Assembly (NCBI GenBank): GCA_017544165.1
Contig: JAFYER010000010.1
Location: 1 to 44,952, forward strand
DNA from: Bacilli bacterium
GTDB lineage: Bacteria; Bacillota_I; Bacilli_A; RF39; UBA660
DNA length: 44,952 bases
Reading direction: 5' to 3'
This document shows positions 3,795 to 39,068 of the stretch, piece after piece. The first letter of the stretch is position 1, and each line of letters starts with the position of its first letter. The notes below the pieces were generated by a model that saw nothing but the letters and a program-made list of their open reading frames with translations, did no database searches and was not told the origin of the DNA. Made by a program: the position numbers and the translations under genes.

Positions 3795-4803
3795 CCGCTA
3801 AAGTTGATTTGGCATTACTTAAAGATGTTGCAACCATTGCCATTTCGCTTTCCGTTAAATCGTTGCTAACCAAATAGTAATCGACATCGTTTGAAGTCCA
3901 GTACATTGAGTTATTTGAAATAGCTCCAATTGTATCATTTAACATAATTGGTTCACCATAAACCGGTATTATTTCTAGTTCATTATTAATCTTGGAACTT
4001 TCTTCGACTAAAACAAAGTTTTTATCCCCACTAAAAGTTAATATAATTCTACTATCTAATTCACTATTTACCATTTCTGAAGAATTTAAATAAGTATTCG
4101 CAGGCATATATAAAGGATATATAGCAGTTTCAATCGTGTTCATACTCTTTTTCTCATTACAATTATCATCTTCACAAGGCTTTTCTTCGATAAACTCACT
4201 CAATTCAAAATCTTTTTCTTTTAATCCTGCTTTTAAATCAACATCAGTAAAATTAACCACAATTTTGATAATATCGTTTGAACTATAAACCTCTACTTTT
4301 TTAATCATATAATTATCATCTAAATAAACTTTTTGATATTTTAAATCACTATTGTTTGGATAATTTACAGTCGAAATAATTATATATTCCTTTCCTTTTT
4401 GATCTACCTTAACATTCTTATCATTATTAATGTCCCTTAGTAAAGAGGAAAGTATATATGCTTGTGAAGAATTATCCGGCCAATTGCTTTCAAATTTATA
4501 GCTTTTATTTAATGCTGGCGTAATAACATACAATCCTTCATCATTTCGAAGAATTACTTGCTTTTGATTGTTGCTCTTGTTAGTCATTTCAACTTTATAA
4601 TAATTATCATTTAAATGATATACATTCATATCATATTCATAGATAATTTCGTCATTTTGAATTTCCATAGTTCCTAGTAAATGATACGACTTACTTCTTT
4701 TTATCTCATTTGAAAACTTATCTATAACATTAATTTCATTATTTGCTTTGCAACCAGTTAAAAAACCAACAGTAAGTATTAGTAATAAAAAATATTTTCT
4801 CAT
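3787..4803 (-). CDS. LolA-like outer-surface lipoprotein
   Basis: 338 residues starting with a lipoprotein signal peptide (lipobox LTGC, Cys18). Residues about 30-205 resemble the LolA/YdcC half-barrel: repeated pairs of strands of the form YxxxGTMEI..., YYKVEM, GLYVITPALNKSYKF, then VYLDDNYMIKKVEVYSSND and KAGLKEKDFELSE. The C-terminal third (about 225-338) is a separate domain seen in similar Firmicute lipoproteins. Gram-positives lack an outer membrane, so a lipid-transport role is not implied; members may bind lipids or act as envelope sensors. AAAGGA precedes the start. Confidence 0.65.
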   Translation of the reverse strand: MRKYFLLLILTVGFLTGCKANNEINVIDKFSNEIKRSKSYHLLGTMEIQNDEIIYEYDMNVYHLNDNYYKVEMTNKSNNQKQVILRNDEGLYVITPALNKSYKFESNWPDNSSQAYILSSLLRDINNDKNVKVDQKGKEYIIISTVNYPNNSDLKYQKVYLDDNYMIKKVEVYSSNDIIKIVVNFTDVDLKAGLKEKDFELSEFIEEKPCEDDNCNEKKSMNTIETAIYPLYMPANTYLNSSEMVNSELDSRIILTFSGDKNFVLVEESSKINNELEIIPVYGEPIMLNDTIGAISNNSMYWTSNDVDYYLVSNDLTESEMAMVATSLSNAKSTLAEK

Positions 4804-4903
4804 AAATCACATTCCTTTTCTATTTAAATATATTTTTAATAAAAGGAATTATTACTGTATAAATATAACAATTTAGCAAATAATAAGAAAAGAAAGGGTG
4901 ATT

Positions 4904-5110
4904 ATGGAAACGTTTCAAAAAACAACTCTTATAGTTACAATTATAGGAGCTCTCAACTGGGGACTAATCGGCTTTTTTGATTTTAATTTAGTTGAATCAT
5001 TATTTAGCGAAAACTCAGTTCTTCCTTCGATTATTTATGCAATCGTCGGAATATGTGGGCTTATTAATATAGGAGTATTGTTTACTCATTTTGATGAACA
5101 TGAAAAATAG
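4904..5110 (+). CDS. DUF378 family small membrane protein (YuzA-like)
   Basis: A 68-residue protein with two membrane segments. It has the family signature GALNWGLIGFFDFNLVESLF in the first helix and a second helix ending in a short charged tail. The function of DUF378 proteins is unknown. The start at 4904 has AAAGGGTGATT before it; a GTG two codons upstream lies inside that ribosome site. It is one of only two clear plus-strand genes in the window and is transcribed alone between the divergent lipoprotein gene and convergent cdaR. Confidence 0.85.
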   Translation: METFQKTTLIVTIIGALNWGLIGFFDFNLVESLFSENSVLPSIIYAIVGICGLINIGVLFTHFDEHEK

Positions 5111-5131
5111 CCTTTTTAAGGGCTATTTTTT
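5103..5131. terminator. Bidirectional terminator between DUF378 gene and cdaR
   Basis: Stem AAAAATAGCC/GGCTATTTTT (5103-5112 with 5121-5130) with an 8-nt loop. It carries a T run on the plus strand and an A-rich left arm that gives T on the minus strand. Both converging genes have stop codons inside it. Confidence 0.85.
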
Positions 5132-6482
5132 AATTGGAACTAGATATTCTAACTTTTATCTTTGATGAGACAACATATGTTACCAATGGATTGTTGTTGT
5201 CAATCTTAACTTCTACTTCGTGATCACCAACACCTAAACCTGTCAAATCAACATAGGCATTAATTGAGGAAGCATCAAGGTCTTCGACTACGGAAGATAC
5301 GCCTTTACAAATAACTGATACACTATCTGTTGATATCATATTGGCCTTTAATGAATTACCTAAATTAATTGGATTAATATTATTTATTTCTACCGTTTTT
5401 TGCTCTTCAGCACCAAAAGTTAAAGCAATTGTAACGGTGGAAGCTGACATGTATCTAACACCATTAGGTTTTGTCAAAGTATATTTAAATGATTTAGCGT
5501 TATCTGTTCCTAAACCATCAACGTTAATTGTTACAGGGATTGATTTAAGATCTGCAAGTTCTGCTTCACTACCATATACAGTTACAGAGTAATCGCTTTG
5601 ATTATTGATTAATATTGAAGCAATACTCTTACCTGCGATTAACTTACCAGTTGTCTTAACTACAATTGGAATGGAAGTAGAATAACTATCAAGAACCACC
5701 GTAGCGCTAAGTGTACTAGGTACGATTTCAACATTATTTAGTATTTTACCTTGATTGTCATAAGCAACTAATAAAACATTATCGATATCATATGAACCAG
5801 CTTCGGTTAAATCTGTATTACTTAAATCCACTAGAGCTTTAATCCAAGCTATTTTGTCAAGTGCAGTTTGGCTGCCTTTAACAACAACTTCATTTTTTGA
5901 TAATGTTACACTTTTAACGCTCAATTTTGAATCTAGTTTATCTTGATTTATAAGCTCATAAGAAACAGATGATACACTGCTTACCTTATTTTTAATAGTA
6001 ACTGATACATATGATGGATCTAATTTATATGAAATATTGTCAATGTTTTTTGAATAAGTAAAGTATGCTTTATGTGGAGCATCAGAGGCACTATATTTGC
6101 TTAAATCCAATAATACCTTAAACTCTCCAAGTTGTTTTGCTAAATAGATATCGCTTTTACGTCCTGTTATTGTAATATCGACAGTCGATGGAACGCCTTC
6201 GACAATATAAGCTTCTTCATTATATTTAACTTCAACTGGGACATTTTGAATTACTTCTGCATTATTTTGAACCAATAATATTACTTTATTATCTATAAAT
6301 AAGAAGAAAACAACTGCTAAAATTAACGATAAAAAGATTAAAAATTTTTGTCTATTGAGAAGTTTATCAATAAAATTACCATTTCTACGCATAGCAGTTT
6401 GAATATTATAAACAATGCGGCTTATTGGAACTATGATTAGTTTATCAAGCAAACGATATAAAAATCTAAATAGTTTAATCAT
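5130..6482 (-). CDS. cdaR: CdaR, YbbR-domain regulator of diadenylate cyclase
   Basis: A 450-residue protein with a short cytosolic N-terminus, one membrane helix (about 48-64) and an extracellular part made of several YbbR repeats (strand sets such as VDITITGRKSDI, VVVKGSQTALDKI, VTVYGSEAELADLKSI). In other Firmicutes CdaR binds CdaA and tunes c-di-AMP synthesis. The start at 6482 lies in an 8-nt overlap with the cdaA stop and is preceded by GAGGGTG, so the two genes are translationally coupled. A longer reading with 17 extra residues starts inside cdaA and is less likely. Confidence 0.92.
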   Translation of the reverse strand: MIKLFRFLYRLLDKLIIVPISRIVYNIQTAMRRNGNFIDKLLNRQKFLIFLSLILAVVFFLFIDNKVILLVQNNAEVIQNVPVEVKYNEEAYIVEGVPSTVDITITGRKSDIYLAKQLGEFKVLLDLSKYSASDAPHKAYFTYSKNIDNISYKLDPSYVSVTIKNKVSSVSSVSYELINQDKLDSKLSVKSVTLSKNEVVVKGSQTALDKIAWIKALVDLSNTDLTEAGSYDIDNVLLVAYDNQGKILNNVEIVPSTLSATVVLDSYSTSIPIVVKTTGKLIAGKSIASILINNQSDYSVTVYGSEAELADLKSIPVTINVDGLGTDNAKSFKYTLTKPNGVRYMSASTVTIALTFGAEEQKTVEINNINPINLGNSLKANMISTDSVSVICKGVSSVVEDLDASSINAYVDLTGLGVGDHEVEVKIDNNNPLVTYVVSSKIKVRISSSN

Positions 6483-20785: not shown

Positions 20786-22168
20786 TTAACTATGATTAGC
20801 ATCTATTATTTCGTAGTAGATACATTCATTTCCTCTTAAACGGGTATTATCTTCGTCGCAAACAAATCCATTAGTTTTATCAGCAGTCTTTTTATAATTG
20901 ATACATCTATCATTATTAACTAAAGTAAAATTATCCGGACATGTTCTATCACGCATTGGATCCATGTCTTCCTCTTTTTCACATTTATTGCCTTTTAATT
21001 TAAAACCATCTTCACACTTATATTCAGTTACTACTGGATCAATATAATTAATAGAGTGCTCACAGTAATCCTCACGACTTGAATACTGTTTGCCATCACG
21101 ATATCCAGCACAAATTAATACATTTGAGGCATCATCCCAACACATGCCGTCTACTTGAATTTTACCAGGACAGCCTTCAGCAATTACAGGAGCTCGATGC
21201 CAGTAACATCTTCCACCGACAAAAGTTCTTTCCGTTGGATCATCTGCAGGTAATTCACATGGTGTTACCGGATGAGTGGCATTTGATAAATCAACACATA
21301 CAACGTAATTAGCATCGCCAGCATCCATATTAGTTAAACCAAGTTCGCCTCTTGTCTTTGCTTCACCTTTTGGACAAGAAAACTCTTTTGGTTCAGCTTC
21401 AATAGTAATAGTTCTTTTGCACTTAGTGCCTTCTAACTCAAATTCATCTTGACAATATAATTCATCAAGTTCTTCGCTTGGTACTTCTTCGTAACATACA
21501 CCTTCATAATCATAATACCCTTCAGGACAAACAAGACCATCTGGGGCTTTTACTCTTTTTACTTCTCTTAAACAAAAATCTCCTTCTAGTTGATAACCTT
21601 CAGAGCAATACCTTCCCGTATTTTTTGTTTCAAGTAACTCTTCAACTGGTTTTTCAACTAGATCTTTTATTTCTATTTTTGCTTTTTCTTCAACTATGGA
21701 ATTAATATATGCGGCTTTTGCTGGACTAATATTATTTTTCTTAGCTAATTTAATATCCTCTTTAGTGATATTTTCAACAGCAATAAATTCAAGTTGAATA
21801 TGCCTTTCATCAAAACTTTTACGGACTATTTCTTCGACATTTTGGCTGCTCGTAGACCCTTGCGAATAAACAAGTACTACTACTCGCCCTTCGTCAGCAT
21901 AACCTTTTTCAATTACCTTATCAGTTAGCTTATTTAGGCTATCCTCTAAAGATGTTCCTTTTAAATCATTAGTAATAATATCTTTAGCATCATCATTTAA
22001 AGCTCTAACACTTTTAACCTTTTCATTTTTACCAAGTTTAATTTCCACGCTTGGGTTAATATCAAGGGTAATTGTTGAAATTGTACGATTATTCCACATT
22101 GCAAATCCTAATATGCCTAAAACAATTAGCAAGCCAATGACCACAAAAACTATTTTTTTATCTTTCAT
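20786..22168 (-). CDS. RsgI-middle-domain surface protein with Cys-rich repeats
   Basis: 460 residues: one membrane helix (about 5-24), then a domain like the extracellular middle part of anti-sigma factor RsgI (STITLDINPSVEIKLGKNEK, KSVRALNDDAKDI, repeated helices to about 180). There is no cytosolic anti-sigma domain. Residues about 186-455 are a chain of short Cys repeats of the form C-x5-[YF]-x-L-x-G-x2-C (QLEGDFC, ELEGTKC, KLKGNKC, RLRGNEC and others), at least six units, probably disulfide-linked. RsgI-type proteins sense polysaccharides in clostridia; a similar surface-binding role here is inference. Confidence 0.7.
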   Translation of the reverse strand: MKDKKIVFVVIGLLIVLGILGFAMWNNRTISTITLDINPSVEIKLGKNEKVKSVRALNDDAKDIITNDLKGTSLEDSLNKLTDKVIEKGYADEGRVVVLVYSQGSTSSQNVEEIVRKSFDERHIQLEFIAVENITKEDIKLAKKNNISPAKAAYINSIVEEKAKIEIKDLVEKPVEELLETKNTGRYCSEGYQLEGDFCLREVKRVKAPDGLVCPEGYYDYEGVCYEEVPSEELDELYCQDEFELEGTKCKRTITIEAEPKEFSCPKGEAKTRGELGLTNMDAGDANYVVCVDLSNATHPVTPCELPADDPTERTFVGGRCYWHRAPVIAEGCPGKIQVDGMCWDDASNVLICAGYRDGKQYSSREDYCEHSINYIDPVVTEYKCEDGFKLKGNKCEKEEDMDPMRDRTCPDNFTLVNNDRCINYKKTADKTNGFVCDEDNTRLRGNECIYYEIIDANHS

Positions 22169-30814: not shown

Positions 30815-31555
30815 TCAATCAAACAATCGATGTTGCATAGCATCTGGTTCATCCAAATACATTTTATAAAGTCCATAAATTTCGGTATCTTTATATTTAA
30901 CTTCTTTAAAATTATTATTAAAATCCAATATTTTTCCATTACGATAACTAATAAGTATGGGTGAGTGGGTTGCTATAATAAACTGACTCCCCTCTTTTAC
31001 TAATTCATCAATTAAACATAATAAAGATAGTTGTCTTTGGGGTGATAAGGCAGCTTCCGGTTCGTCAAGTATATATAAACCATGGTCAGTAAAGCGATTT
31101 TGAACAAGTTTAATAAATGACTCTCCATGGGAACACTCATGTAAATTTCCTCCATATGCAAAGTATAGCGTTCCAAAACCATCTTCCTCGACTAATCTTT
31201 GCAACTCAGATGAAAAATTATAGAAACTTTCTGCTCTTAAGAAAAATTTCATTTTTGGTTTGTTAAAAGTTTCGATTCTTAAATAATCAGATAAAACAGA
31301 GGTTGTATTTTTCGTTTCATATTGAAAATTACTTGTTCCACCTTCAGCTGGTAATCCCAAAGCAACAGCTATTGCCTCAATAAATGTGGATTTACCTATA
31401 CCATTTTCTCCAATAAAAAAAGTAACAGGTGATGAAAATTTTAATTCATTAAAGTTTTTAACAATCTCAATATTAAAAGGATATTTATCAAAAGAAGAAA
31501 TTTTATCTCTATCTAAAACTATTTTTTTAATCATTAAATTGTTATTTAAACTCAT
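30815..31555 (-). CDS. AAA ATPase (COG3910/AAA_21-like, SMC-type fold)
   Basis: 246 residues with Walker A GENGIGKST, an ABC/SMC-type signature region (GESFIKLVQ), Walker B LYILDEPEAALSPQRQ and switch ATHSPIL, the features of predicted ATPases related to RecF/OLD. No nuclease or DNA-binding domain is fused. Small proteins of this group occur in both housekeeping and defence contexts. It lies 7 nt after an unknown gene and 17 nt before another, in one operon. Confidence 0.85.
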   Translation of the reverse strand: MSLNNNLMIKKIVLDRDKISSFDKYPFNIEIVKNFNELKFSSPVTFFIGENGIGKSTFIEAIAVALGLPAEGGTSNFQYETKNTTSVLSDYLRIETFNKPKMKFFLRAESFYNFSSELQRLVEEDGFGTLYFAYGGNLHECSHGESFIKLVQNRFTDHGLYILDEPEAALSPQRQLSLLCLIDELVKEGSQFIIATHSPILISYRNGKILDFNNNFKEVKYKDTEIYGLYKMYLDEPDAMQHRLFD

Positions 31556-32698: not shown

Positions 32699-32729
32699 AA
32701 AAAAGTAATAATTAAATTACTACTTTTTT
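32699..32729 (-). terminator. Terminator of the TasA-like/sipW/DUF5305 operon
   Basis: A 14-bp stem (minus strand AAAAAAGTAGTAAT with ATTATTACTTTTTT, one wobble), 3-nt loop, ending in six T. It includes the stop codon. Confidence 0.85.
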
Positions 32730-33829
32730 GCTTTCTTACTTTCTGCTATATGATTTTTAATATCACTTACTTTTAAACAATATGTATAAAGTATTTTGGT
32801 GTTGCTTGGGATTATAAAGTACACTCCATCCTTGCTACTATTCTCAACCATTAATATTGGTTGTTGAAGTGTATCTCTTATTTCTAACATGTCACTAAAA
32901 GTATCAACCTTCAATTTTTGATACATAGACAAATTAAATTGGTTATTGATTTTTTGAATATATGAATGATAGTTATTTAATATTTTCTTTAATTCCTTAT
33001 GATAAATATCCTCAGCGGTCCTTGTTTTAACGATGTACCTTATTAATATTATAATAATAATAGTTGTAAAAGCTGACATCAAAATACCAAAGAATAAGAA
33101 CACTATAGTTTTAAAATTGTTATTACTACAAGCCATTATATTGTCTTCTGTTTCAATTAAGTCGTTGCTCATTTCAATATTCATCGTCTTAGTAGTAAGT
33201 GGTATTTCAATCGACATAACAGATTCATTGCTTTTATTGTCTAGATCCTCACAACTGCCTAAAATGTTAACATACATCCTAACAGTTAAAGTTGAATTTG
33301 TATTATCTAGATTATATGTGCTTAAGAAGCTCTTGATTAAATCATTATACTTATTGTAATTGATTCTAACCTTTTCATTAATATAAGCATCACTTTTCTT
33401 TTCACTGTATCTAACTATCTCGTTAATAATGGTTTCTTTATAATTATACAAAGAACTAGTACCATTTTTTTCTTTAACATTGATTTCAGATTCAATAAAA
33501 TACGAATATTTGAAATCTGCATTTTCGTCTTGCAATGATATCTTATAATTAAACGTTGTATCGATATAATCAATTAAACTAGCTATATAACTACGATTAG
33601 GCCCTAAGAATTTTTCTTTAAAGAAATCATTTTCCTTTAAATATACTTTATAATCGATATCACTTGTTTCATTGTATTTAATATAAACTTCTTTGTTTGT
33701 ATATGAATGAAGGAATAAAAAAGCTAAAGCAAGTATTGCATAAAAGACTACTAAACAAGCATATTCAATAATATGTTTTTTTCTTTTAGCTTGTTCAACA
33801 AGTATTTTATCAACATTGCTTTTTTTCAC
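32720..33829 (-). CDS. DUF5305-like two-helix membrane protein
   Basis: 369 residues: one membrane helix (about 22-41), an extracellular domain of about 190 residues with strand patterns (EVYIKYNETSDIDYKVYLKEN, YIASLIDYIDTTFNYKIS, NSTLTVRMYVNILGSCED), a second helix (about 240-264) and a cytosolic tail. This layout and the VYIKYNETSDIDYKVYL motif fit DUF5305 proteins, which in other Firmicutes and archaea sit next to SipW-type signal peptidases. Its exact role is unknown. It is the last gene of the surface operon. Confidence 0.65.
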   Translation of the reverse strand: MKKSNVDKILVEQAKRKKHIIEYACLVVFYAILALAFLFLHSYTNKEVYIKYNETSDIDYKVYLKENDFFKEKFLGPNRSYIASLIDYIDTTFNYKISLQDENADFKYSYFIESEINVKEKNGTSSLYNYKETIINEIVRYSEKKSDAYINEKVRINYNKYNDLIKSFLSTYNLDNTNSTLTVRMYVNILGSCEDLDNKSNESVMSIEIPLTTKTMNIEMSNDLIETEDNIMACSNNNFKTIVFLFFGILMSAFTTIIIIILIRYIVKTRTAEDIYHKELKKILNNYHSYIQKINNQFNLSMYQKLKVDTFSDMLEIRDTLQQPILMVENSSKDGVYFIIPSNTKILYTYCLKVSDIKNHIAESKKAKK

Positions 33830-33862: not shown

Positions 33863-35011
33863 TTAATTAAATAATCGTCTTAACCACAATGTAGGCCAAC
33901 CAATGTATTTAATTTTTAGTTTTACTAGTCCGTTAATATCGGCTTCGGTACGATATCCACTATCATAGCTTTTGTTTGCATCACCCTTAGTAAAATACCT
34001 TACTTCGCCATTAATATTTTTTATTTCTACCACCCTATGAATAGTACTCATATTTCCATAATAAAATACAATTACTTGACCTTTTTGAATTTTACTATTT
34101 TTATTATATTGCTCATATATAATCGCATCACCTACATCTATAGTACCTGTCATACTTTCAGAACCTATAACCATTATTCCATATTTGAATTGGCAAGATA
34201 TTAGCATAATCATTAGTGTAATAAACCCAAAGATGAAACAAGTCCATATAATACTTTTTTTCTTATCCTTATATGCAATAGCTAAATTACTTCTGGCATA
34301 TGTTTGTTCAAATATTAAATAAATAATAAATGGATATAGTATCCTAAGAAATGTCCTTAGGAATAAATACACATCTGGTTGATATGGAATTAAATAAATA
34401 TACAATATGGTTATAAATCTAAATAATATTATCGGTTTAGCGCCAAATCTTTTTGATATATAGTTAAATAGTAAGTTATTAGCCATTGAAGAAAACAGAA
34501 TAAAACCAATAGCAGTCAAAAAATCATCTAGCTTATTTAAGTTATAAATACCGGCATAAATATTATAATCTACTAATACCAATGATAAGTAAATTAGAAC
34601 TAACGATAAATCAAATTTATGACCCTTAATTTTTATAACCATATTTTGATTAATCAAAATAACCCTAATAACTTCTGAAGATATTATAATTATTATTGTT
34701 GGAATAATAATATTAAATATATTTCTGATAGTAAATAGATATTTTGATCTGACAAAACCGAAATGCAAGCCAAGTGCGTATAATACCCCTAAATATATAA
34801 GAGCAAAAATTAGCATCAACAATAGTACTTGTTTATCATAAATAGACTTAATACCTCTCTTCTTAATTAATTGCCTTATGATAAACATAAAAATCAACAA
34901 GAAGGTTGCTAAGAACCACCTTGTTTCTATATATGATGCAAAGAGAGTAAAGAATAGAACTACGATAAGAACAAACTCTAATATATAAAGTCTTAATTTG
35001 TCTTTCTTCAT
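33863..35011 (-). CDS. sipW: SipW-type (ER-like) signal peptidase with a large polytopic N-terminus
   Basis: 382 residues. The catalytic part is C-terminal: GSESMTGTIDVGD with Ser286, STIHRVVEI with His325 (His instead of Lys, as in the ER/archaeal/SipW class) and KGDAN with Asp344. About eight membrane helices (about 8-240) precede it, where B. subtilis SipW has only one plus a C-terminal one. It should cleave the special signal peptides of the two neighbouring SipW-type exported proteins (35046 and 35817). Confidence 0.88.
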   Translation of the reverse strand: MKKDKLRLYILEFVLIVVLFFTLFASYIETRWFLATFLLIFMFIIRQLIKKRGIKSIYDKQVLLLMLIFALIYLGVLYALGLHFGFVRSKYLFTIRNIFNIIIPTIIIIISSEVIRVILINQNMVIKIKGHKFDLSLVLIYLSLVLVDYNIYAGIYNLNKLDDFLTAIGFILFSSMANNLLFNYISKRFGAKPIILFRFITILYIYLIPYQPDVYLFLRTFLRILYPFIIYLIFEQTYARSNLAIAYKDKKKSIIWTCFIFGFITLMIMLISCQFKYGIMVIGSESMTGTIDVGDAIIYEQYNKNSKIQKGQVIVFYYGNMSTIHRVVEIKNINGEVRYFTKGDANKSYDSGYRTEADINGLVKLKIKYIGWPTLWLRRLFN

Positions 35012-35045: not shown

Positions 35046-35603
35046 TTAAGCTCCTGCAGCTGGTGTAGCATTAATTGAAACACCAATATTAGTAGTACTG
35101 TCGGTTTCTTGAATTGGTGTATTTGTTAATGTAACAATAACCTTAATTGTTGCCTTTTCGCCATGATTTAAGGTTTTTGTACCGCTTGCCCAACTTGAGT
35201 ATGTGCCAGATCCAGATTTAGCGCCATCTTTGTAAGATACACTAACGCTAAAGAAGCTAGATTTAGAATTAGTGATTGTTGGTAATGCCAATGTAGCATT
35301 AACATCAGATTCTTTATTTTGAATCTCAAATTCTAATTCAACAGGAGTATTAAGTACCATATCAGTTACTGTAAATGTTGCTTCTGTTGAGTCATCATTT
35401 GATGTAATAGCAGTAACTTTATTTGATTCACCATTAGTAGTACCAGAGTTAACTCCATCAAATACTACTTTTAAATCTTCGGTCTTTGAAGCACCGGTAC
35501 CAGTAATATTCAATGTTACTTGAGATACAACAGCATAACCTACACCCAAAACTAGAATTAAAACACCTATAACTAATAATAAAATATTCCTCTTATTTTT
35601 CAT
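35046..35603 (-). CDS. TasA/camelysin-like secreted protein with SipW-type signal
   Basis: 185 residues. The N-terminus has the SipW-dependent signal: basic start, hydrophobic core LLLVIGVLILVLGVGYAVVS and the downstream QVTLNITGTG. The mature part (about 155 residues) is a Ser/Thr-rich beta-sandwich without Cys, as in TasA and camelysin, which polymerise into matrix fibres in Bacillus. It is followed by the signal peptidase gene 34 nt downstream. Start with GGGAGGTG upstream. Fibre formation is inferred from the family, not visible. Confidence 0.8.
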   Translation of the reverse strand: MKNKRNILLLVIGVLILVLGVGYAVVSQVTLNITGTGASKTEDLKVVFDGVNSGTTNGESNKVTAITSNDDSTEATFTVTDMVLNTPVELEFEIQNKESDVNATLALPTITNSKSSFFSVSVSYKDGAKSGSGTYSSWASGTKTLNHGEKATIKVIVTLTNTPIQETDSTTNIGVSINATPAAGA

Positions 35604-35816
35604 AATTCACCTCCCTATCTTTTAATATTTTCGGGGTAACAATAAAACCAAACAGGCATATCATTCCCTCATGTCAAAAATTTTTTAAGTAGAACTACCA
35701 TATATTTACTCTACTCTAAAATTAATTATAACACACAATTCGACAAAATCCACCATTTTTTTGTAGAAAAAAAAGCAAAAAATTGCTAAAATAAATATAG
35801 ACTGGGAAAGGGTATA
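35604..35816. promoter_or_regulatory. Divergent regulatory region between the two SipW-substrate genes
   Basis: 213 bases. A consensus TATAAT on the minus strand (within 35725-35732) is a possible -10 for the TasA-like gene, leaving a leader of about 115 nt that contains a hairpin with arms AGTAGA/TCTACT. No convincing -35 or plus-strand promoter is seen. An AGCAA/TTGCT inverted repeat lies at 35774-35787. Confidence 0.35.
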
Positions 35817-38165
35817 ATGAAAAAAGATAGAATATTATTATTAATTATTATTTTTGCTTCATTAATTATGGGAATTGGCTATGCTACAGTTAATAGTGTT
35901 TCTCTATCTATAAGCGGTAATTCAGTGGTTGCTAACAATGGTAATTTTAGTATAATTAGCGTTACCCAAACTGATTTAAAAAATTTAACTGCTTCAGAAA
36001 CACATACTGATACAAGTGTTGAGTTAGCTTTATCTTTTAGCGTTAATAAAAACGATACTTCCTCAACCGATGAACACTCGGTAACATATCAAGTAGTAAT
36101 TTATAATGATTCGATTCAATCTTTTGCTATAGGTTCAGAAATATTTAGCCCACATATTACAACAGCCGCTTCGAACGGTGAATCACTAGAATATATATAT
36201 GAGCCAATTGGAATTACTTTAGGTGAAGAAATTAAAGCAAAACAAACAAAACAATTCTCTATAAAAGTTACCCTGGTTCCTTCGGGTGGTGTCGCAAACT
36301 ATTCAGCTGGTGTTAATACCACTGTTGAGGTTCAAGAGGTTAATTTAGGTATTTTTACTGCAACACTTACCGGAAGTACAAGCGGCGATTTAACCGGTTC
36401 AAATACGGTAACACCTTTTACCGTGACCTTATTAAATAGTCTTGATACAAGTAAAACATATAATTTCTCATTAAGTAATCCAAATTTCCAAATATGTGAT
36501 GCAAGTGGAAATGCACTTGCAAACCAAACAATCGCAGCCGAAACCGAAAATCAAACATTTACTTTCTACATAAAAAATTCGTCAGGCATGAATTTTCCAA
36601 GCAGTCCAATAAATATTAACGTCTTTTTAGTACCAACTGATAGTGATGCATTTAGTATCGGAGTAGTAACCATAGCCGTCAATGTTGATCAGACAATGGC
36701 TGATAACCAAGACCCTGTTATTAGTTCTTTAAATGTTACAAAAGGAAATACCACTAGAACTTTAGAAGTCACCTGGTCAGCCTCTGATAACATCGGTATT
36801 GATCATTATGATGTTTATCTATATAGATCTAATGGACAGGAGGCAGCTTCATCTACGGGTTTAACAACATCAAGTTATACTTTCAACAATGTAAATGATG
36901 GAAGTTATTATATAACTCTAATTGCTTATGACTCTAGAAATAGTGCAACAATGAGTACTGAATCTGTAGCAAGAACCTGGACATATAATGTAACTATTAA
37001 TTGTTCAAATTGTACGGCAAACCCAAATGGTGGTACAGTCGAGGCTGGTGGCACTTATCGAACAACGTTTTCAGGAAGCGGTAACAATTATGATCCACCT
37101 TCATCTATGGGCACAATATACATGTATAATAGTACCACAGGTGTTCGAAGTGAAACTACTTCCTATCACTATAATGATAGTCAAACAAATACTAATCAAC
37201 TTGTTATATCAAATGTAACTGGAGATATTGAAATTAACGCTGCAGGTGTAAATGGCGGTGGCGGTTGCCTAGTTAAAGGGACAAAAATACTACTTGCAAA
37301 TGGTAAAACCAAAAATGTCGAAGATATTAAATATGATGATTTATTGGCAGTATGGAATTATGATACAGGAAGCTTAACATATGTATATCCTCTTTGGATA
37401 GAAAAAGCCTATGAAACAGATACAATAACTAGAATTACTTTCGAAGATGGATCGACACTTGAAATAGTTTATAACCACTCCTTATATGACACTGACCAGA
37501 ATTTATTTGTTGATATGCTAAGTGATAATACATTCCATATAGGCAGTAACGTTGCTAAAATTAATTCTGATGGTACAATTACAAGTGTTAGAATAACAAA
37601 CATCGAAGAAATACCTAAAAAAACAACTTTCTATTTCATTGGATCGACAACTTACTACAACATTATTGCTAATGATTTCTTAACCACTGATCGTTATACA
37701 GCTATTTCTAATCTTTATGGTTTTATAGATAATGCAAAATGGCCGCCATCCAAATATGAACTACTTTCCGATAGTAATAATCTAGTAAGTTATGATTTAT
37801 TCAAGGATTTATTACCTCATTACTTATTCGTAGGATTTAGAGTTCAAGAAGCAGGAATTCTATTTAACAACATGGGAACTAATTTCGAAGAATTTGCCTC
37901 ATATATAGATGCATTTATAACTACTGATAAGTACTTGATTAAGCCAATTCAAAAAAATGGTTACAATTACTGGATGGTAACAACAAGCTTAGATAAAGTT
38001 CGTGATAACAACAAAACAAGCTTCTTGCAAAAAGAAGGATCAACATTTAGGTTACCTATTTCATCGAAAGTAAAAAAATGGTATTCAACAAGTGAAAACA
38101 AATATTACTTACCTGGTGAATATGTAGTTGTTAATCACGGAATGCATTTCGAAGCAATTTATTAA
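35817..38165 (+). CDS. Large secreted protein with SipW-type signal, Ig/FN3-like domains and a Hint domain
   Basis: 782 residues. A SipW-type signal (ending MGIGYATVNSVSLSISG) leads to a TasA-like strand domain (about 30-175), a beta-sandwich (about 175-295), an FN3-like domain (about 298-390, DNQDPVISSLNVTKGNTTRT) and a beta domain with a CSNC pair. After VNGGGG comes Cys484 (CLVKGTKILLANGKTKNVED), the start of a Hint module. Block B shows IVYNHSLYD (His kept, Thr of TxxH changed to Val). YFIGSTTYYNIIANDFLTTD forms the closing block, without the terminal His-Asn of inteins. About 140 unassigned residues follow. It is divergent from the SipW operon. Confidence 0.8.
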   Translation: MKKDRILLLIIIFASLIMGIGYATVNSVSLSISGNSVVANNGNFSIISVTQTDLKNLTASETHTDTSVELALSFSVNKNDTSSTDEHSVTYQVVIYNDSIQSFAIGSEIFSPHITTAASNGESLEYIYEPIGITLGEEIKAKQTKQFSIKVTLVPSGGVANYSAGVNTTVEVQEVNLGIFTATLTGSTSGDLTGSNTVTPFTVTLLNSLDTSKTYNFSLSNPNFQICDASGNALANQTIAAETENQTFTFYIKNSSGMNFPSSPININVFLVPTDSDAFSIGVVTIAVNVDQTMADNQDPVISSLNVTKGNTTRTLEVTWSASDNIGIDHYDVYLYRSNGQEAASSTGLTTSSYTFNNVNDGSYYITLIAYDSRNSATMSTESVARTWTYNVTINCSNCTANPNGGTVEAGGTYRTTFSGSGNNYDPPSSMGTIYMYNSTTGVRSETTSYHYNDSQTNTNQLVISNVTGDIEINAAGVNGGGGCLVKGTKILLANGKTKNVEDIKYDDLLAVWNYDTGSLTYVYPLWIEKAYETDTITRITFEDGSTLEIVYNHSLYDTDQNLFVDMLSDNTFHIGSNVAKINSDGTITSVRITNIEEIPKKTTFYFIGSTTYYNIIANDFLTTDRYTAISNLYGFIDNAKWPPSKYELLSDSNNLVSYDLFKDLLPHYLFVGFRVQEAGILFNNMGTNFEEFASYIDAFITTDKYLIKPIQKNGYNYWMVTTSLDKVRDNNKTSFLQKEGSTFRLPISSKVKKWYSTSENKYYLPGEYVVVNHGMHFEAIY

Positions 38166-38167
38166 AC

Positions 38168-38197
38168 AAAAAAGCTAGCAGATTTTGCTAGTTTTTT
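38168..38197. terminator. Bidirectional terminator between the Hint protein and an ATPase gene
   Basis: Stem CTAGCA/TGCTAG (38175-38180 with 38186-38191), flanked by six A on the left and six T on the right, so it can serve both convergent genes. Confidence 0.85.
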
Positions 38198-39068
38198 AAT
38201 TAAATTCATCTCTATGTTCTTCGAAAAAGCTATTATATACTTTTACATTATCAAGTTCTGTCCATTTTTTAGGTTTAACAGGTTTGCTATCTAAGTCATA
38301 AATTTTTGCCCCGTCTAACGCTAGCAAAAATGGTGAATGAGTTGCTATAATAAACTGACAATTGTAAAATCTTGCTGATTCCTCGATAAACGTTTTTAGT
38401 TTTAATTGGTTTTCAGCAGATAAACTATTTTCTGGTTCATCAATGATATATAGTGAATTATCTTCAATTTCATTTTGCCAAAAATCTAGTGCTGTTTCCC
38501 CATTTGATTCTTGCATAATTGTATTATTTCTTAATCTTGTTCTAACATATTTCGAAGCTGTCATCCTGTTGGAATCAACTTTATTTCTTAAATCTTCATA
38601 TTGGCTTAAAGATGAATTATACTTCTCTGAAGGATTATATTTATACTCAAAATATTCGCTAATTAATTCAGTTTTTCTTCGATTAACACTTGAATTAATT
38701 GCTCTTAAATCAAGTAAGTAATCAAACACGTCATCACTTGAAATATACTTAATGCTTTTACACTCACCTTGATGAATTAATTCGCAATGTTGTTTGCAAC
38801 ACTGAACATATTGATCAAAAAAGATAGTTCTTTTATCAATATTTCTTTTTGAAGCATTAACAGTATCACTTATAATATTTAAAATTGTTGTTTTACCTGA
38901 ACCATTCCCACCATAAAAAATAGTAATTGGTTCAAAATCAATTTTCTCAAATTCTTTTTCAGGAAATATTCTAAGTGGATAAAAATTAGTATGAATATTC
39001 ATTTTATTCATAATCATACCATCTTCATAATCTTCATTTAGTAGTTTAAAATTTTTTAAGTAAATCAT
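38196..39068 (-). CDS. AAA ATPase (AAA_21/COG3910-like), second copy type
   Basis: 290 residues: Walker A GGNGSGKTT (about 54-62), a helical insert with two Cys pairs (QYVQCCKQHCELIHQGECK), a charged middle region, Walker B LYIIDEPENSLSAENQ and switch ATHSPFLLAL. It has the same general design as the ATPase at 30815 but is longer and clearly diverged. Expressed alone. The start has AAGGCGG 5 nt upstream. Physiological role unknown. Confidence 0.82.
   Translation of the reverse strand: MIYLKNFKLLNEDYEDGMIMNKMNIHTNFYPLRIFPEKEFEKIDFEPITIFYGGNGSGKTTILNIISDTVNASKRNIDKRTIFFDQYVQCCKQHCELIHQGECKSIKYISSDDVFDYLLDLRAINSSVNRRKTELISEYFEYKYNPSEKYNSSLSQYEDLRNKVDSNRMTASKYVRTRLRNNTIMQESNGETALDFWQNEIEDNSLYIIDEPENSLSAENQLKLKTFIEESARFYNCQFIIATHSPFLLALDGAKIYDLDSKPVKPKKWTELDNVKVYNSFFEEHRDEFN

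What the first reader, a model, noticed from the sequence alone, without database searches (positions are those of the whole stretch)
35817..38165. SipW-exported surface protein ending in a Hint (intein/Hedgehog-like) domain
Seen: VNGGGG then Cys484 opens a Hint-like module, with the block-B His kept, but Thr of TxxH replaced and no terminal His-Asn. Known: Hint domains make a thioester at their first Cys; without the C-terminal Asn step they can hand the N-terminal part to an outside nucleophile, as Hedgehog does with cholesterol. Inference: a roughly 450-residue TasA/FN3 ectodomain might be released or covalently attached to a cell-surface acceptor, next to its own dedicated peptidase.
Basis: partly seen in the sequence, partly recalled or inferred. 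Interest (0 to 1): 0.85.

Follow-up and report, generated by a model that had tools for sequence, protein, structure and literature searches.

The report
Fibre protein ending in Hedgehog-like module
A gut bacterium's surface-fibre protein ends in a domain folded like the self-processing part of animal Hedgehog, with the key cysteine and histidine kept in nearly all of more than a hundred relatives, which suggests that some bacteria cut or chemically attach their own surface fibres without an added enzyme.

Summary
ORF 35817-38165 (+, 782 aa) carries a real Hint fold from Cys484: AlphaFold2 pLDDT 96; Z 16.6 over 140 residues to a solved BIL domain and Z 15.8 to Hedgehog. Among 109 relatives (Bacilli, Clostridia, Saccharibacteria, phage tail proteins) Cys1 is kept in 109 and the block-B His in 108; the block-B Thr and the terminal His-Asn are absent. 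The Hint is followed by a conserved extension of about 155 aa, placed like the sterol/adduct-recognition region of Hedgehog, with no significant match. The sipW link is real: in 50 of 60 relatives with this N-terminal part, sipW and DUF5305 lie within 2.5 kb, mostly as a tight operon TasA-like / SipW / DUF5305 / large subunit. The link is not universal: most copies of that operon carry other C-termini (including a second one in this genome), and the module also closes type IV prepilins and unrelated surface proteins. Best reading: a Hedgehog-like module on a fibre subunit that makes a thioester at Gly483-Cys484, resolved by an outside nucleophile. Covalent attachment is slightly favoured over plain release; neither is shown. 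New variant of a known kind.

The parts
35817..38165 (+). CDS, 782 aa: exported large TasA/FN3-type subunit ending in a Hint module
   Evidence: ribosome-binding-like GGGAAAGGG before the ATG
35817..35885 (+). SipW-type signal peptide, residues 1-23; probable cleavage after GIGYA
   Evidence: G21 and A23 invariant in 41 relatives; cleavage site inferred
35886..36386 (+). TasA-like N-terminal domain, residues about 24-190
   Evidence: hhalign to the small TasA-like family 99%, E 2.4e-18, signal region included
36714..36986 (+). FN3 domain, residues about 300-390
   Evidence: profile A3 against PDB, fibronectin E 4.5e-10; fn3 in 23 of 41 members
37266..37268 (+). Cys484, first residue of the Hint module
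   Evidence: 109 of 109 aligned relatives
37266..37694 (+). Hint domain, residues 484-626
37401..37403 (+). Glu529 (module position 46), lines up with Hedgehog general base D46 in a sequence alignment
   Evidence: 78 of 79 in clade 1; alignment; register not proven
37476..37478 (+). His554 (module position 71), block-B histidine
   Evidence: 108 of 109 relatives
37692..37946 (+). helical part of the C-terminal extension, residues 626-710, with near-invariant R675 and E678
   Evidence: no significant fold match
37947..38162 (+). C-terminal beta-grasp-like part, residues 711-782, probably a degenerate Listeria-Bacteroides (InlB B) repeat
   Evidence: Flg_new in 4 of 54 members, best E 4e-4; weak structural matches, Z below 5
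35604..35816 (.). 213-bp divergent intergenic region between the TasA-like gene and the Hint gene
35046..35603 (-). small TasA-like fibre subunit, 185 aa
   Evidence: family profile A4: AbpX E 0.008, camelysin PF12389 in one member E 0.003
33863..35011 (-). SipW-like (ER/archaeal-type S26) signal peptidase, 382 aa
   Evidence: TIGR02228 over its cut-off, E 7.6e-22
32720..33829 (-). DUF5305 membrane protein, 369 aa, conserved third gene of the operon
   Evidence: PF17231 E 4e-13, over its cut-off; 73 of 193 genomes of the order have DUF5305

Best explanation
The protein is the large, optional subunit of a TasA-type surface-fibre operon. After SipW cleavage its N-terminal strand can join the fibre, and its C-terminus carries a Hedgehog-like autoprocessing module: a Hint domain (residues 484-626) plus a recognition extension (626-782). 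Cys484, helped by His554, shifts the Gly483-Cys484 peptide bond to a thioester. There is no terminal His-Asn, so splicing cannot follow; the thioester is resolved by an outside nucleophile chosen by the extension. The TasA/FN3 part thereby ends in Gly483 joined to an acceptor (on the cell envelope or a target surface), or is released if water acts. Shown: fold, conserved Cys and His, absence of the C-terminal step, conserved extension, operon. Inferred: place in the fibre, thioester, transfer, acceptor.
For: Hint fold, Z 16.6 to a BIL domain and Z 15.8/15.3 to Hedgehog (Foldseek; profile). C1 109/109, H71 108/109, N132 106/109, although the aligned family spans 28-57% identity to the window. 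No His-Asn end: TTD in clade 1, other residues in clade 2. Glu at the Hedgehog D46 position in 78/79 of clade 1 and not in phages. Extension with near-invariant R192/E195 kept in 6 of 7 aligned phage sequences. Operon in 50/60 TasA-type relatives; swappable C-termini of the fourth gene.
Against: No activity can be tested here. The block-B Thr is lost in the window and not conserved in the family. The residue before Cys1 is free (T, S, G, W, I, V and even P), and Pro there usually hinders the acyl shift (own knowledge). No acceptor is known, and the extension has no recognised binding fold. The genome also has sortases, so such a system is not needed for anchoring.
Confidence: 0.48

Rival explanations
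1. Shedding: the Hint makes the thioester and water (or a small thiol) resolves it, so the fibre subunit simply loses its C-terminal 299 residues during maturation or on a signal.
For: Same conserved Cys and His; B-type BIL domains are described as giving N- and/or C-terminal cleavage (PMC5874633); the extension could be a folding aid.
Against: An extension of about 75-155 aa conserved across phyla and phage, and Glu at position 46 in clade 1, are unneeded for plain hydrolysis.
Confidence: 0.27
2. Non-catalytic: the Hint is a structural or binding head of the fibre subunit; Cys1 and His are kept for folding or for redox or metal binding.
For: The residue before Cys1 is unconstrained and includes Pro; the block-B Thr is lost; other C-termini replace the Hint in the same operon.
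Against: C1 is the only Cys of the window's module, so no internal disulfide; exactly the two residues needed for the acyl shift are the most conserved of all while most of the rest varies.
Confidence: 0.17
3. Polymorphic-toxin pre-domain (PT-HINT): the Hint frees a C-terminal toxin.
For: HINT domains next to C-terminal toxins are common in Bacillota (PMC3482391).
Against: The C-terminal part is conserved, not swapped, in clade 1; no shared downstream gene that could be an immunity gene (largest cluster 4 of 57); PF07591 has no match in the genome; no toxin fold.
Confidence: 0.03
4. Degenerate intein, a selfish relic inserted in a surface protein.
For: Fold and block A are intein-like.
Against: Always at or near the C-terminus, no C-terminal splice residues, no endonuclease, strict keeping of C1 and H71, fused to several unrelated N-terminal parts.
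Confidence: 0.03

Closest known systems
Hedgehog C-terminal (Hog) domain: Hint + sterol-recognition region
   Same: Secreted N-part, C-terminal Hint with Cys1 and block-B His, no His-Asn end, a further conserved region after the Hint, Gly before Cys in the window protein, acidic residue at position 46
   Different: Block-B Thr missing; extension unrelated by sequence; bacterial fibre subunit in place of the Hedge domain; acceptor unknown
Bacterial intein-like (BIL) domains, e.g. BUBL1 BIL2 (6tmm/6y75) and C. thermocellum BIL (2lwy)
   Same: Closest solved folds; found in variable bacterial surface proteins
   Different: No terminal His-Asn; carries an extension; linked to a TasA/SipW/DUF5305 operon
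C-terminal Hint proteins of Proteobacteria and Myxococcota noted by Burglin 2008 (PMC2362128)
   Same: Secreted bacterial proteins with a divergent Hint at the C-terminus
   Different: Different N-parts and taxa; no fibre operon or extension reported; sequences not compared here
TasA/TapA/SipW operon of Bacillus and archaeal bundling pili (AbpA/AbpX)
   Same: SipW-type peptidase next to small TasA-like subunits; AbpX is the best solved match of the small subunit
   Different: DUF5305 as constant third gene; a large fourth subunit whose C-terminus is exchangeable, here a Hint
Thioester-domain adhesins such as SfbI (PMC4450167)
   Same: Idea of a thioester on a surface protein that reacts with an outside amine
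   Different: Internal Cys-Gln thioester and unrelated fold; here the thioester would be in the main chain and lead to transfer
Sortase anchoring
   Same: Thioester followed by transfer of a surface protein to a nucleophile
   Different: Here it would act in cis and once; no LPXTG in the protein

Membership tests
Hint superfamily | Horseshoe Hint fold starting at a Cys/Ser/Thr | tested here: met
Hint superfamily | Conserved block-A nucleophile and block-B His | tested here: met
   C1 109/109, H71 108/109
Hint superfamily | Block-B Thr (TxxH), usual but not universal | tested here: not met
   Val in the window, variable in the family
Hedgehog/Hog | Gly before Cys1 | tested here: not met
   Gly in the window protein, but the family has T, S, G, W, I, V, P and others
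Hedgehog/Hog | Asp/His general base (D46) for the acceptor alcohol | tested here: inconclusive
   Glu aligns there, 78/79 in clade 1; sequence alignment only
Hedgehog/Hog | Sterol/adduct recognition region after the Hint | tested here: inconclusive
   A conserved extension is present; no fold match
Hedgehog/Hog | Transfer of the N-part to a sterol | not testable with these tools
   needs biochemistry
Intein | Terminal His-Asn and a +1 nucleophile | tested here: not met
   TTD or other residues
BIL type A/B | Lies in a variable bacterial, often secreted, protein | tested here: met
BIL type A/B | C-terminal cleavage residues (His-Asn) | tested here: not met
Polymorphic toxin PT-HINT | Exchangeable C-terminal toxin with an immunity gene downstream | tested here: not met
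   conserved C-terminus, no shared downstream gene
TasA/SipW fibre operon | ER/archaeal-type SipW peptidase adjacent | tested here: met
TasA/SipW fibre operon | TasA/AbpA-type subunits | tested here: inconclusive
   AbpX E 0.008, camelysin E 0.003 in one member, hhalign between the two families 99%
TasA/SipW fibre operon | Donor-strand polymerisation | not testable with these tools
   needs structure of the fibre

The most novel reading that the evidence does not exclude
A bacterial counterpart of Hedgehog processing on surface fibres: a cis-acting, one-shot 'built-in sortase' that joins the C-terminus of a fibre subunit covalently to a chosen nucleophile on the own envelope or on a target surface, spread among gut Bacilli, Clostridia and Saccharibacteria and also present on phage tail proteins.
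Probability: 0.28. Interest if true: 0.88.

Novelty: new variant of a known kind. Interest (0 to 1): 0.64.

Why it matters
Covalent fixing of surface fibres in bacteria is known through sortases and internal thioesters. A Hedgehog-like module doing the job in cis would be a third way, would bear on the unknown origin of Hedgehog-type transfer, and would give a new protein-ligation tool. It also defines a four-gene fibre operon with exchangeable ends that is common in gut and rumen Bacilli and has passed to Saccharibacteria.

Tried and rejected
PF07591 in the own genome: no match. Single-protein scan of viral contigs: no relative. Phage records by tblastn: only short matches of under 60% identity to block A-B stretches, several inside annotated DNA-repair/recombination genes, and none for the phage tail protein itself. 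L116-L123: those with a RecA-like N-part by eye were left out as likely true inteins. hhalign of the family profile against a single Hedgehog sequence aligned the wrong region and was not used. Matches to Ataxin AXH are short block-A look-alikes. Search of the C-terminal extension alone: no significant fold; an InlB B-repeat is among weak hits only. DUF5305: no paper found. Promoter-like sites are no more frequent than in shuffled sequence. The idea that the Hint replaces missing sortases fails: three sortase matches in the genome.

Full report
WHAT IS THERE. ORF 35817-38165 (+) encodes 782 aa. It starts with a signal peptide ending GIGYA, in which G21 and A23 are invariant in 41 relatives. 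Then come a TasA-like beta domain, a second beta region, an FN3 domain at about 300-390, an Ig-like repeat, VNGGGG, and a module of 299 residues from Cys484 to the end. Single-sequence family scans find only sub-threshold Hint/intein matches.

THE MODULE IS A HINT DOMAIN PLUS AN EXTENSION. An alignment of 66 relatives gave a model with mean pLDDT 96.4 and pTM 0.92. Foldseek and VIA-align put residues 1-144 on the Hint fold: BUBL1 BIL2 Z 16.6 (rmsd 2.0, 140 residues), Hedgehog Z 15.8 and 15.3, C. thermocellum BIL Z 15.0, many inteins. The profile alone finds BIL2 at E 1e-8. Residues 145-299 form a helical part and a beta-grasp-like part. Modelled alone they have no significant match (pLDDT 91.6); the last 70 residues probably descend from a Listeria-Bacteroides repeat (Flg_new in 4 of 54 members, best E 4e-4).

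CATALYTIC RESIDUES. Over 109 aligned relatives (79 clade 1, 7 phage, 23 from other Bacilli families) Cys1 is kept in 109, His71 in 108 and Asn132 in 106. This count holds for matches that begin at profile position 1 or 2. Of two that do not, L073 is a broken gene whose Hint frame still has the Cys, and L079 is a remnant that lacks block A. The block-B Thr is not conserved, and the intein end His-Asn is TTD in clade 1 and other residues elsewhere. Glu46 is kept in 78 of 79 clade-1 sequences and lines up with Hedgehog D46, the general base that activates cholesterol (papers named; PMC7765530), in a MAFFT alignment. No residue-level structural superposition was possible, so this is a lead. The residue before Cys1 is free; Gly in the window protein, as in Hedgehog.

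RELATIVES AND SPREAD. The module occurs in 13 of 288 genomes of the order and in 80 fetched loci of gut and rumen Bacilli, Clostridia and Saccharibacteria. The 17 Saccharibacteria copies form one clade (96/85) within a tree otherwise of Bacillota and Mycoplasmatota, which fits one transfer (rooted at the midpoint only). Other N-parts carry the same module: type IV prepilins (L040, L043, L046), InlB-repeat proteins (L027), large surface proteins of other Bacilli families where Hint and helical part close the protein, and proteins in phage tail-like gene clusters (L109-L115; tail assignment by eye). In 7 Saccharibacteria copies an acidic linker and a TM-like segment follow. A giant-virus Hint protein matches over 195 columns at 29% identity.

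OPERON. With a profile of the N-terminal part as the criterion, 60 relatives had enough upstream DNA; 50 of them have sipW and DUF5305 within 2.5 kb, usually as TasA-like / sipW / DUF5305 / Hint protein on one strand with short or overlapping junctions. The window, L029, L030 and L032 show a divergent version. The small TasA-like family has AbpX (E 0.008) as its best solved match and camelysin in one member, and it matches the N-terminal domain of the Hint protein (hhalign 99%, signal region included). ABPx, ABP and TasA fibres are donor-strand fibres (PMC11952670; PMC9674648). DUF5305 occurs in 73 of 193 genomes of the order. In 20 sampled DUF5305 loci no gene carries the Hint, and the large gene after DUF5305, where present, varies. 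The window's own genome has a second operon whose fourth gene is an 896-aa adhesin-like protein without Hint. So the Hint is one of several exchangeable ends of the fourth subunit, and the peptidase serves the fibre system.

HOW IT MOST LIKELY WORKS. From established Hint chemistry (PMC7765530; PMC5874633), Cys1 and the block-B His make the N-terminal thioester; without His-Asn only N-terminal steps remain. The conserved extension, placed like the Hedgehog recognition region, speaks for a specific acceptor and so for transfer over hydrolysis, but modestly. Whether the subunit sits at the tip or the base of the fibre is unknown. Thus the N-part is either attached through Gly483 or released.

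ALTERNATIVES. A polymorphic toxin is disfavoured (conserved C-terminus; no shared downstream gene). A relic intein is disfavoured by strict conservation and place. Replacement for sortase by necessity is ruled out, as sortases are present. A purely structural Hint cannot be excluded.

NOVELTY. Hint domains at the ends of secreted bacterial proteins are known as a kind (PMC2362128; PT-HINT PMC3482391). I found no paper on this family, its extension or its tie to TasA/SipW/DUF5305 in the held library; most subscription journals are not in it.

Noticed in passing
L166 (own genome, contig C9) 1928-8753: Second TasA-like/sipW/DUF5305 operon with an 896-aa InlB/TasA adhesin-like fourth gene and no Hint; a serine recombinase gene lies directly upstream, which could mean phase variation.
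   Followed up: partly
own genome: Seven matches to the ER/archaeal-type signal peptidase family (six over the cut-off) in a genome of 1.05 Mb, suggesting many SipW-type export systems.
   Followed up: no
L040 7221-8894, L043 7533-8891, L046 2145-3806: The same Hint + extension fused to the C-terminus of type IV prepilins (GFTLIELLAVIVIL).
   Followed up: partly
L087, L096-L098, L100, L102, L105: Saccharibacteria proteins with the Hint followed by an acidic linker and a C-terminal TM-like segment.
   Followed up: partly
L109-L115: Proteins in phage tail-like gene clusters that end in the same Hint; all but L115 keep the R and E of the GxRxxE motif of the helical extension; three distinct contigs (L109, L110/L111, L113) have Pro before Cys1.
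   Followed up: partly
BFVD A0A3G5A239 (Gaeavirus): Giant-virus Hint protein matching Hint plus start of the extension over 195 columns, rmsd 2.0, 29% identity.
   Followed up: no
window 30815-31555 and 38196-39068: Two short AAA ATPases on the minus strand that score with PtuA/AriA-type models of anti-phage systems; partner genes not sought.
   Followed up: no
window 20786-22168: Membrane protein with an RsgI-like start and Cys-rich 'CPEGYY...GVCYEE' repeats (by eye only).
   Followed up: no
L073 about 4150-5845; L079 5352-6062: Broken copies: in L073 the N-part and the Hint lie in different frames (Cys kept); L079 is a Hint remnant without block A.
   Followed up: partly
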